Part shown: in pieces, positions 18,268 to 61,303 of the stretch
Layout of the letters: each line of letters begins with the position of its first letter
Position numbering within the stretch: the stretch's first letter is position 1
NCBI RefSeq assembly: GCF_029948125.1
Contig: NZ_JASAMB010000001.1
Location: forward strand, 434,001-498,000
DNA from: Catellatospora sp. KI3
Lineage (GTDB): Bacteria; Actinomycetota; Actinomycetes; Mycobacteriales; Micromonosporaceae
Direction: 5' to 3'
DNA: 64,000 nucleotides
Notes under the pieces: generated by a model
Seen by the model: only the letters and a program-made list of their open reading frames with translations
What the model was told of the DNA's origin: nothing
The model's database searches: none
Translations under genes and position numbers: made by a program

Positions 18268-18329
18268 TGCAGTTTCGGGGAAAGTGCACGAATCCGGGGC
18301 TGGATGGGTGCGCTTTCCCCGAAACTGCA
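18268..18329. repeat. 62-bp dispersed palindrome, copy 1
   Basis: Perfect 16-bp arms TGCAGTTTCGGGGAAA (18268-18283) and complement (18314-18329). It lies between the convergent DUF7144 and S15 hydrolase genes, where it can serve as a two-way terminator. Its centre diverges from the other copies. Confidence 0.9.
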
Positions 18330-18336
18330 TGATCTT

Positions 18337-19899
18337 CTAGCGGGTGGGCAGGTCGAGCCAGGACTGGCCGGAGAAGAGGACGGACCCGAGGGTGCCGTTC
18401 TCGTCCAGGTAGAAGCCGTCGTGGCCGTCGACGACCAGAGCCAGGCGGTGGCCCGCGGGCACGTCCCAGCTGGTCGCGGGGAACTTGATGTCGAGGGTAC
18501 GGGCGGCGCCGGCGGTGCCGTTCAGCCACGAACCCGGGGCGTGGGTGATCAGGCGCCCCGTACCCGCCCAGTCCACGTCGTACAGGTACGCCACCAGGGT
18601 GCCGCTGCGCTCGGTCGGGGTGAACCGGGCGTGCACCGTGGCCGCGCCCCGGATCCGGATCGTGCCGCCCGCCTCGTCGGCCTGCCACACCCCGGCGGCG
18701 TTGCGGTCCACGGCCGGGATCCAGGCCGTCGGCGGGATGCCGGTCAGCGCCTGCAGCCCGTTGGACAGCAGCACCACCCCACCGGCGGCCACCGTGTCCA
18801 CGGTGAACCAGGTACGCCGCGACCAGCCCGTCGACGGGGCGCCGCCCAGCCGGCCGGTGCCGGTCAGCCAGCTCACCTCGCCCAGGCCGTACCGGACGGT
18901 GGTGGTGTTGACCGCCGCCCAGCTCGGGTAGGACTCGACCGGGCCGCCCGTGAGCGAACGCAGCACCACCGGCGGCTCGGTGTCGATCCCGTTCGCCGCG
19001 CCCTGCAGGTAGCGGTCCATCCAGCGGCGTACCGAGGTCCACACGTGGTTGTCCAGCCCCGCCAGGCCGGTCAGCTCCGGGATGGCGTGGTCGCCCGGGG
19101 CGAACTCCAGCCGCTTCGGGCCGGTCAGGCCGGTGAAGAAGTCGGTGAGCTGGTTCGGCGGGAAGATCGAGTCGCCGTACCCGTTGGCCATCAGGATCGC
19201 GGGGTGGCTGGCGTTGATCGCGGCCAGGTACGTGCCCGCCGACCGGGCGCGGGCGAAGGACTTCACCCCGTCGATGTTGCGGTTGGCGTAGAAGTCGCCG
19301 ATCACCGTGTCGAACTCGTCGCTGGTGTCGGCCAGCAGCGCCGCCGCGCCGACCAGCAGCGCCGAGGACTGCAGGCGGCGGGTGTCCCCGCCGTAGAGCG
19401 AGGCGACCAGGTCGCTCCAGCCGCTGAGCGCGGCCACCGCCCGGATCCGGCTGTCGTGGCCGGACGCGATCAGGCTGATGCCCGCGCCGTACGACACCCC
19501 GGCCATGCCCAGGCGGGAGGCGTCGGCAGTGGTGTTGGCGACGGTCCAGTCGAGCACCCGGGACACGTCGGCGATGTCCTTGGGCCCGGCGGTGTCGACC
19601 TCGCCGCCCGAGGCCCACCACCCGCGCGGGGTGTACGACACGACCGTGTAGCCGCCCTGGGCGAGGGCGCCGGCCTGGGCCAGGTACTCCAGATCGTTGA
19701 GTCCCCAGCTGGACGGGAACACGATGGCGGGGTGCCGGCCGGGGCTGGTCGGCTCGATGACGTTGGCCTTGAGCACCACCCCGTCCGAGGCGGTGATGTC
19801 GACGAAGCGGAACCCGGTGGTCGTGCCGGCGTGGGCGGGAGCGGCCCAGCCGAACAGGGCTAGCACGACCACCGTGAAGAGGGGTAGGGATCTCCTCAC
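18337..19899 (-). CDS. Secreted CocE/NonD-type (peptidase S15) alpha/beta hydrolase
   Basis: 520 residues with a Sec signal peptide (RRSLPLFTVVVLALFGWAAPAHA, cleavage near 24). The hydrolase domain has GVSYGAG with nucleophile S136, and GDHAIPEL supplies the likely catalytic histidine. The C-terminal ~200 residues form the jelly-roll-like PepX_C domain (LVAYLYDVDWAGTGRLITHAP, LALVVDGHDGFYLDENG). Family members are X-Pro dipeptidyl peptidases, cocaine esterases or glutaryl-7-ACA acylases; substrate is not evident. The stop is 7 bp from palindrome copy 1. Confidence 0.87.
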   Translation of the reverse strand: MRRSLPLFTVVVLALFGWAAPAHAGTTTGFRFVDITASDGVVLKANVIEPTSPGRHPAIVFPSSWGLNDLEYLAQAGALAQGGYTVVSYTPRGWWASGGEVDTAGPKDIADVSRVLDWTVANTTADASRLGMAGVSYGAGISLIASGHDSRIRAVAALSGWSDLVASLYGGDTRRLQSSALLVGAAALLADTSDEFDTVIGDFYANRNIDGVKSFARARSAGTYLAAINASHPAILMANGYGDSIFPPNQLTDFFTGLTGPKRLEFAPGDHAIPELTGLAGLDNHVWTSVRRWMDRYLQGAANGIDTEPPVVLRSLTGGPVESYPSWAAVNTTTVRYGLGEVSWLTGTGRLGGAPSTGWSRRTWFTVDTVAAGGVVLLSNGLQALTGIPPTAWIPAVDRNAAGVWQADEAGGTIRIRGAATVHARFTPTERSGTLVAYLYDVDWAGTGRLITHAPGSWLNGTAGAARTLDIKFPATSWDVPAGHRLALVVDGHDGFYLDENGTLGSVLFSGQSWLDLPTR

Positions 19900-32670: not shown

Positions 32671-32732
32671 TGCGGTTTCGGGGAAAGTGCAGGAATCTTG
32701 GGCCGGATTCGCGCGATTTCCCCGAAACTGCA
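32671..32732 (-). repeat. 62-bp dispersed palindrome, copy 2
   Basis: Same 62-bp length; one change in one arm. The asymmetric centre CCAAGATTC reads on the minus strand, so this copy is inverted relative to copies 3-5. It lies between the convergent hdeD and patatin genes. Confidence 0.9.
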
Positions 32733-36505: not shown

Positions 36506-36567
36506 TGCAGTTTCGGGGAAGCTGCACGAAAGCCCGCCAAGATTCCAGCACTTTCCCCGAAACTGCA
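36506..36567 (+). repeat. 62-bp dispersed palindrome, copy 3
   Basis: Arms TGCAGTTTCGGGGAA(G) and TTTCCCCGAAACTGCA with centre CCAAGATTCCAGCAC. It lies between two co-directional genes (end of sensor kinase, start of chitinase), not between convergent genes. Confidence 0.9.
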
Positions 36568-55456: not shown

Positions 55457-55517
55457 GATCGCCGTTTCGGGTCACGAGAAGCGGTTCAACCGCATCCTGT
55501 GACCCGAAGCGGCGATC
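55457..55517 (+). terminator. Intrinsic terminator of kgd (GATCGC/GCGATC palindrome family)
   Basis: GATCGCCGTTTCGGGTCAC (55457-55475) pairs with 55499-55517, with an inner hairpin GCGGTTcAACCGC. It is followed by TTTTCTT. Outer ends match the three palindromes at 23.5-23.8 kb. Confidence 0.88.
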
Positions 55518-59461: not shown

Positions 59462-59804
59462 TCGAAGTACCCCCGTACTCAGGCTCGTCGAGCCGTACGA
59501 GCCTCACATTAACCCCGGCTCGCACCGATATGTCGACCTTCTCCGGATACGTGGCGCCCAGCGGGGCGGGGTGGTAGGGCGGCAGTGGGGGCTGTTTCCG
59601 GGGAAACCGCACGAATATCGACCAAGATTCGTGCAGTTTCCCCGAAACTGCACGAATGAGCGCCCAGAAAGGTGCGTGAGCAGGCAACCGGGGTTGCGGT
59701 CCAATGGGGACACAGCTACATTGACGTAGTGACTACATCGACATTGTCGACGGGATGGTCCCGTTGTAAGTCCCTGCTCCGGAACACGATCAGAAGGAGG
59801 GATC
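59462..59804. other. 343-bp gap between LysM gene and a small plus-strand gene
   Basis: No gene. It holds palindrome copy 4 and, at 59715-59765, an AT-richer promoter-like stretch with TTGACG and two short palindromes (GTAG-TGA-CTAC and TCGA-CATTG-TCGA). Confidence 0.6.
59591..59652 (+). repeat. 62-bp dispersed palindrome, copy 4
   Basis: Right arm exact; left arm degenerate. The inner pair GCACGAAT/ATTCGTGC is perfect and the centre CCAAGATTC is kept. Located between divergent genes. Confidence 0.85.
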
Positions 59805-61241: not shown

Positions 61242-61303
61242 TGCAGTTTCGGGGAAACTGCGCGAATCCGATCCAAGATTCCAGCACTTTCCCCGAAACT
61301 GCA
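61242..61303 (+). repeat. 62-bp dispersed palindrome, copy 5
   Basis: Perfect 16-bp arms TGCAGTTTCGGGGAAA and complement, centre CCAAGATTCCAGCAC as in copy 3. Lies between two minus-strand genes (malic enzyme 3' end, MDR 5' end). Confidence 0.9.

What the first reader, a model, noticed from the sequence alone, without database searches (positions are those of the whole stretch)
36506..36567. Family of exactly 62-bp intergenic palindromes, five copies in the window
Copies at 18268-18329, 32671-32732, 36506-36567, 59591-59652 and 61242-61303 all have the same length and arms (TGCAGTTTCGGGGAAA / TTTCCCCGAAACTGCA). Constant length plus a partly conserved asymmetric centre (CCAAGATTC at a fixed position in four copies) goes beyond what a terminator needs and suggests a mobile or actively maintained element. 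Density is about one per 13 kb. No transposase is nearby, so a REP/RAYT-like or MITE-like origin is an inference.
Basis: partly seen in the sequence, partly recalled or inferred. Interest (0 to 1): 0.8.

Follow-up and report, generated by a model that had tools for sequence, protein, structure and literature searches.

The report
Rigid 62-bp gene-end palindrome family
A soil actinomycete (Catellatospora) carries hundreds of copies of a 62-base mirror-image DNA element, nearly always exactly the same length and mostly just after the ends of genes; it is built like known mobile 'REPIN' repeats, but the enzyme that moves those was not found, so something else may copy or preserve it.

Summary
The five palindromes are real. 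The element occurs 303 times in this Catellatospora genome and 23-217 times in each of ten other genomes of the genus. With exact cores, 589 of 597 copies in six genomes have the same arm spacing; the other eight differ by one base. Arms are nearly invariant. The centre is free: in three other species it is close to random and shows almost no base-pairing covariation. This speaks against a simple hairpin terminator and for two arms read in rigid register. Copies lie at gene ends (27 of 64 between convergent genes; 26 of 29 testable tandem copies nearer the stop). In orthologous gaps the element persists while its flanks are close to unalignable, so it is conserved in place. The RAYT link fails: no RAYT-type transposase was found in the three high-copy genomes. 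No consistent target duplication was seen. Best reading: a REPIN-like inverted doublet, read as a unit by an unknown protein, serving gene ends and spread by RAYT-independent copying. Other palindromes, two of them (B, F) also of nearly fixed length, occupy some orthologous gaps that lack it. Function is untested.

The parts
18268..18329 (.). family A 62-bp palindrome, between convergent genes (DUF7144 gene ending 18240 +; S15 peptidase ORF with stop at 18337 -)
   Evidence: element also in the orthologous gap of G009 and G008
32671..32732 (.). family A 62-bp palindrome, between convergent genes (DUF308 protein +; patatin -); TTGG half on the left
   Evidence: present in the G008 gap, absent in G009
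36506..36567 (.). family A 62-bp palindrome, 47 bp downstream of the stop of a histidine kinase gene on the minus strand (tandem gap by my gene caller)
   Evidence: present in the G009 gap; no element in the G008 gap
59591..59652 (.). family A 62-bp palindrome with a degenerate left arm, in a long tandem gap
   Evidence: G008 has a copy with one core mismatch and G009 a 63-bp degenerate one in the orthologous gap
61242..61303 (.). family A 62-bp palindrome, 37 bp downstream of the malic enzyme gene (minus strand)
   Evidence: G009 orthologue keeps core 0.93 and centre 0.95; element also within the fetched malic-enzyme locus of G006, degenerate in G004; absent in G008
55457..55517 (.). a copy of another palindrome family (D: GATCGCCGTTT..AAACGGCGATC, 61 bp), shown because its length is close to that of family A
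   Evidence: C1 position 489457-489517, shifted by 434000

Best explanation
The 62-mer is a REPIN-like inverted doublet: two arms of about 20-21 bp (TGCAGTTTCGGGGAAAsTGC), held 41 bp apart centre to centre (about four helical turns) around a roughly 20-22-bp spacer whose length matters but whose sequence matters little. Shown: copy number, rigid spacing, arm conservation, a free and hardly pairing centre, gene-end position, conservation in place, no RAYT found. Inferred: a sequence-specific protein of the host reads both arms as one unit on double-stranded DNA; at gene ends this serves as an orientation-neutral boundary (blocking or terminating transcription from either side); the family grew by rare copying of the whole 62 bp through a mechanism that is not RAYT. 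The identity of the protein and the boundary function are the unproven steps.
For: Spacing: 589 exact-core copies at the standard spacing against 7 one base shorter and 1 one base longer, with spacings 1-29 and 31-60 searched in the same six genomes. Position profile (111 copies from three genomes): outer arms 4.3% off consensus, positions 18-20 and mirror 2.7%, but 17/46 34%, 21-22 and mirror 40%, centre 27-36 31%. Almost no pairing covariation in the inner 15 pairs of 75 copies of G001+G002 (575 Watson-Crick cells against 567.8 expected), nor, apart from one pair at p 0.027, in 45 G007 copies. Gene ends: density 1.12 per kb in convergent, 0.34 in tandem and 0.10 in divergent gaps; 26 of 29 tandem copies nearer the stop. 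Conserved in place: 52 orthologous-gap pairs have core identity 0.91 and centre 0.78, while 30-bp flanks have 0.65-0.67, near the 0.60-0.62 of unrelated gaps. No orientation bias of the asymmetric half relative to transcription: 16 to 14. Copying: shared asymmetric centre at unrelated gaps.
Against: No binding protein was identified. Three outer pairs of 31 (4/59, 5/58, 10/53) covary across the whole palindrome (0, 1 and 4 of 1000 permutations reach the observed pairing), which favours base pairing or arm homogenisation, though related copies are not independent. The arm's own two halves show no covariation, so a separate dimer site per arm has no support from it. All seven RNA folds of the five window copies are strong hairpins (-30.9 to -48.2 kcal/mol). 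Gaps without A often hold other long palindromes, which suits plain termination. Gene-end palindromes other than A are also rarer on the terminus side of G007, so such elements are not needed at every gene end.
Confidence: 0.42

Rival explanations
1. A bidirectional intrinsic terminator family: the RNA of either strand folds into a long hairpin at the gene end, and the family spread because it is a good terminator.
For: Gene-end location and convergent enrichment; strong hairpins, on both strands for the two copies folded both ways; other palindromes in several orthologous gaps that lack A; length-matched convergent gaps with A hold another long palindrome less often (6 of 22) than those without (35 of 69), and tandem gaps likewise (1 of 20 against 36 of 244); outer-arm covariation.
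Against: A terminator hairpin does not need a fixed loop length or a conserved 20-bp sequence; the inner part shows almost no pairing covariation in three species; the flank base counts show no run of T; 31 of 63 gap-placed copies lie in tandem gaps and terminus-side gene ends mostly lack long palindromes.
Confidence: 0.28
2. A selfish REPIN/MITE-like element whose mobiliser is unrecognised or recently lost; length is fixed because only 62-bp copies transpose; gene-end location is only tolerance.
For: Architecture equals a REPIN: inverted doublet, specific spacing, less conserved spacer (PMC3116915, passages read); copying evident from the shared centre; copy number varies 23-303 within the genus; E. 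coli genomes without RAYT still carry REPINs, though fewer (PMC8049555, passages).
Against: No Y1_Tnp in the three high-copy genomes; in-place conservation above the flanks is not expected of a merely selfish element; no consistent target duplication and no clean empty site; tandem copies lie near the stop codon.
Confidence: 0.24
3. A chromosome-organising site (in the manner of nucleoid-occlusion or macrodomain sites), set mostly in the origin half.
For: In the one-contig genome G007, of 50 listed of 58 exact copies, 4 lie in the terminus quarter and 16 in the terminus half.
Against: Palindromes other than A show the same gradient: 10 of 20 sampled convergent gaps on the origin side against 1 of 20 on the terminus side, so the gradient is not specific to A. 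Resemblance of the arm to the Noc site is recalled only.
Confidence: 0.06

Closest known systems
REPINs (REP doublets forming hairpins; PMC3116915, passages read)
   Same: Two inverted conserved arms, each with its own palindrome, at a specific distance around a less conserved spacer; extragenic; hundreds of copies; mostly doublets.
   Different: No RAYT found in the high-copy genomes; one single spacing (REP spacings vary there, 71 and 110 bp being the two commonest); inner part hardly selected to pair in three species; clear gene-end bias; conserved in place.
GTAG- and CGTC-tagged REPs (PMC3733652, passages read)
   Same: Short stem-loop units joined as inverted dimers, most with spacers of 20-100 bp, some of similar length and different sequence.
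   Different: The arm of this species bears neither tag; each arm is a 9-bp near-palindrome (one pair often mismatched) around 3 bases. That paper's main text has no occurrence of Actinobacteria, Micromonospora, Salinispora or Streptomyces (term search).
Bidirectional intrinsic terminators (general knowledge)
   Same: Location and ability to fold on both strands.
   Different: Rigid length, conserved primary sequence, free and hardly paired centre.
MITEs (general knowledge)
   Same: Short, inverted ends, no genes, many copies.
   Different: No consistent target duplication; no recurrent inverted pair of arms at any other distance up to 2 kb in 1.2 Mb.

Membership tests
REPIN/RAYT system | inverted doublet of conserved arms at specific spacing with a divergent spacer | tested here: met
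REPIN/RAYT system | RAYT (Y1 HUH transposase) encoded in the genome | tested here: not met
   PF01797: 0 in G000, G008, G009 (and G001, G010); matches in the other 6 of 11 genomes, frames up to 157 aa (one 234-aa frame with a weak match). NF047646: weak matches in 3 of 11, 0 of 11 over cut-off; the control search passes the cut-off in one of 14 control genomes
REPIN/RAYT system | elements flank the RAYT gene | tested here: not met
   no element (up to 4 core mismatches) in the loci fetched around the 9 Y1_Tnp matches in other species; only about 1.5 kb each side seen
REPIN/RAYT system | spacer able to complete a hairpin with compensatory changes | tested here: inconclusive
   three outer arm pairs covary in 111 copies; inner part does not in G001 and G002 and hardly in G007
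GTAG/CGTC REP superfamilies | terminal GTAG or CGTC tag next to the stem | tested here: not met
   consensus TGCAGTTTCGGGGAAAGTGCAGGAATC in these genomes; several related elements of G020, in another family, contain CGTC next to the arm, not pursued
MITE | target-site duplication | tested here: not met
   104 copies: directly at the ends, 3-bp repeats 0 against 1.3 expected, 2-bp 27 against 18.1, 6-bp 1 against 0.2; one base further out, 3-bp 4 against 1.0; a duplication of varying length is not excluded
MITE | autonomous partner with the same ends | tested here: inconclusive
   no recurrent long-distance arm pair within 2 kb in 1.2 Mb; one search lists 55 lone arms in 2.4 Mb, most of them the arm of a known element read on the other strand, a few true single arms whose neighbouring genes were not examined
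intrinsic terminator | stable RNA hairpin at gene ends | tested here: met
intrinsic terminator | transcripts end there | not testable with these tools
   no RNA data
known RNA family | match to an Rfam model | tested here: not met
   0 matches at gathering threshold in the window

The most novel reading that the evidence does not exclude
Catellatospora has a gene-end system made of several palindrome families with different arms (A 62 bp; B 53-bp core; F 57-bp core; perhaps D 61 bp) that keep nearly fixed lengths and can take each other's place in orthologous gaps. A common, undescribed, RAYT-independent machinery would measure element length, copy whole elements into gene ends and read them there as transcription or chromatin boundaries.
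Probability: 0.25. Interest if true: 0.82.

Novelty: new variant of a known kind. Interest (0 to 1): 0.58.

Why it matters
REPINs are held to be copied by their RAYT transposase and to form a hairpin (PMC3116915 and PMC8049555, passages). Here a REPIN-shaped family reaches 200-300 copies in genomes where no RAYT was found, keeps its length to within one base while its centre drifts, and is conserved in place at gene ends. It separates what REPIN architecture requires (rigid arm spacing) from what was assumed (RAYT, pairing spacer), and it offers a tractable case in a soil actinomycete for asking whether such repeats are parasites or working gene-end parts.

Tried and rejected
RAYT or IS200-type mobiliser: not found where copies are most abundant. 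MITE with a consistent target duplication: none. Longer element with the same ends: no recurrent arm pair within 2 kb; lone arms only listed, their genes not examined. Virus or plasmid carriage: 0 stretches in viral contigs with the exact pattern, no match in plasmids in distant mode with one 62-base consensus. Rfam: none in the window. Nucleoid-occlusion-like siting: fewer copies near the terminus in G007, but other palindromes are fewer there too. Pure RNA-hairpin selection: inner pairing nearly absent. De novo histogram of long palindromes was too noisy in GC-rich repeats to show one length by itself; per-family spans were used instead. Literature: the listings of searches show no paper on these elements in Catellatospora or Micromonosporaceae; the library holds only openly licensed papers. 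PMC3116915, PMC8049555, PMC12306157 and PMC3733652 were seen as term passages only. Gene calls are from my own codon-usage ORF caller, not from an annotation; Pfam was run on 10 window ORFs only, so 'no transposase in the window' was not tested in full.

Full report
OBSERVATION. The window is contig C1, 434001-498000, of an 8.2-Mb assembly in 96 contigs.

EXTENT. The pattern of two 11-base cores 30 bases apart, up to 3 mismatches in 22, has 303 copies in this genome and 0 for the reversed control; in the ten other genomes of the genus it has 95, 48, 33, 23, 37, 68, 86, 202, 217 and 74, controls 0. In 298 genomes of the order at up to 2 mismatches, 15 match: the window's genome, 13 genomes of one sister genus with 1-3 copies each, and one 2.4-Mb genome of another family with 5 copies of a variant; the reversed control matches once, in one other genome. 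In 396 genomes of the phylum with a related, stricter pattern only the window's own genome matches. This is a family of one genus with traces in relatives.

LENGTH. In 1.2 Mb of this genome 62 of 64 close core pairs are exactly 41 bases apart; the other two are 40 and 42. With exact cores, six genomes hold 589 copies at the standard spacing (173, 59, 29, 58, 164, 106), 7 copies one base shorter among all spacings of 1-29 and 1 copy one base longer among spacings of 31-60. Substitutions in the spacer are common, length changes are almost absent.

WHAT IS CONSERVED. In 111 copies from three related genomes, turned so that the GAATCTTGG half is on the left, the outer arms depart from consensus at 4.3%, positions 18-20 and their mirror at 2.7%, 23-26 and mirror at 8.9%; positions 17/46, 21-22/41-42 and the middle 27-36 depart at 34%, 40% and 31%. 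The alternation of fixed and free positions looks like contacts of a protein, which is inference. The asymmetric centre is shared by copies in unrelated gaps of this clade, so they descend from one another. In G001, G002 and G007 the centre is close to random (identity 0.43, 0.45 and 0.41 against 0.35, 0.33 and 0.35) although arms and length remain. G001 and G007 share some copies with the same centre, so they are not fully independent.

PAIRING. Across the full palindrome, pairs 4/59, 5/58 and 10/53 covary (0, 1 and 4 of 1000 permutations reach the observed pairing; 31 pairs tested, copies partly orthologous), while 17/46, 21/42 and 22/41 do not, and 22/41 pairs less often than expected (33 against 54); no pair within one arm covaries at that level. 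In 75 copies of G001 and G002 the inner 15 pairs give 575 Watson-Crick cells against 567.8 expected, with 17/46 the nearest to an excess (p 0.058). In 45 G007 copies 23/40 is nominally above expectation (p 0.027) and 26/37 near it (p 0.059). So arms match each other, but the inner part is hardly kept as a stem. As RNA, the five window copies (two of them folded on both strands) fold at -30.9 to -48.2 kcal/mol.

PLACE. Of 64 elements in 1.2 Mb, 27 lie in convergent, 31 in tandem and 5 in divergent gaps, 1 overlaps a predicted gene. Per kb of gap this is 1.12, 0.34 and 0.10; of 29 tandem copies with room to test, 26 are nearer the stop (median 47 bp from the stop, 141 bp from the next start). 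The asymmetric half has no preferred direction (16 to 14).

ORTHOLOGOUS GAPS. G000 C1 (0.8 Mb) was compared with 0.6 Mb each of G008 and G009. Of 55 candidate elements of G000, the G009 gap has an element in 21 cases, none in 19, and no anchors in 15; for G008, 21, 18 and 16. Of 22 in G009, 20 are present in G000, 1 absent, 1 unanchored; of 25 in G008, 21, 2 and 2. The candidate sets include two 5-mismatch matches in G000, of which the one at 74866 lies in sequence conserved like coding DNA and is chance; its rows among the 'absent' are not real losses. In 52 same-length pairs (not independent; 12 gaps hold an element in all three genomes, 16 in two) the core is 0.91 identical, the centre 0.78, the 30-bp flanks 0.65 and 0.67; for unrelated gaps these are 0.89, 0.68, 0.60 and 0.62. 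For the 29 pairs with centre identity of at least 0.8 flanks are still at 0.65. The element therefore stays while its surroundings are rewritten. Empty gaps usually differ by much more than the element, and none printed is a clean join; the nearest case, C1 509052 against G008, matches up to the left end only.

OTHER FAMILIES. In several gaps that lack A other palindromes appear. Spans of adjacent core pairs in 2.4 Mb are nearly fixed for F (57 in 43 of 45) and B (53 in 29 of 31), less so for D (61 in 7 of 15) and C (55 in 4 of 8). F and G sit mostly at gene ends (F 22 convergent, 9 tandem, 1 divergent; G 19, 17, 3 and 2 elsewhere); B (3, 6, 0), D (3, 8, 1) and C (2, 3, 2) are few. That A, B, D and F are all near 61-62 bp depends on where the outer ends are drawn, and several B copies share with A the motif CCAAGATwC just right of the centre, so a common length mechanism is a hypothesis, not a result.

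CHROMOSOME. In G007 (one contig, dnaA near 1.43 Mb) 50 of 58 exact copies were listed; of the 50, 4 are in the terminus quarter and 16 in the terminus half; the 8 unlisted lie beyond 7.8 Mb if the list is sorted. Long palindromes of other kinds are fewer there too: in 20 sampled stretches, 10 of 20 convergent and 11 of 68 tandem gaps on the origin side against 1 of 20 and 5 of 54 on the terminus side hold one, family A left out.

MOBILITY. Y1_Tnp is absent in G000, G008 and G009 and present in 6 of 11 genomes, all with fewer copies. NF047646 gives three weak matches, none over the cut-off. No match in viral contigs at the exact pattern or in plasmids at distant sensitivity. Copying has happened; its means are unknown.

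VERDICT. Architecture and sequence evolution match REPINs, but the RAYT requirement fails and the pairing requirement is doubtful; position and in-place conservation suggest a working gene-end element. A protein reading two arms in rigid register explains the fixed length best; RNA termination explains position best; both may be true in part.

Noticed in passing
L016-L077 (G000), L092-L111 and L142-L181 (G009, G008): Several other intergenic palindrome families, two with nearly fixed core spans (B TTGCCGGGCAATCG, F ACGCTGGCCTATC), others less fixed (D GATCGCCGTTT, C GATCATGAACTTATG) and a shorter one (G, GATAAGAAGGGGCCC, about 44-48 bp); some occupy orthologous gaps that lack family A.
   Followed up: partly
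L182-L201 (G007): Long gene-end palindromes other than A are much rarer in sampled terminus-side stretches than in origin-side stretches (1 of 20 against 10 of 20 convergent gaps).
   Followed up: partly
flanks of family A copies, e.g. C1 26126, 88347, 323294: GATC often lies 1-3 bases outside either end, and TTCG/CGAA directly outside the ends; meaning unknown.
   Followed up: no
G020 (2.4 Mb, another family of the order): Five elements of the same arm spacing with variant cores TTTCAGGGAAA (3) or TTTCCGGGAAA (2), some with T-runs in the centre.
   Followed up: no
G001:C8:187552-188730 and G007:C1:2296889-2298067: Of the 11 best malic-enzyme matches, these two are the ones reported with one TAG inside the match; its position was not looked at.
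   Followed up: no
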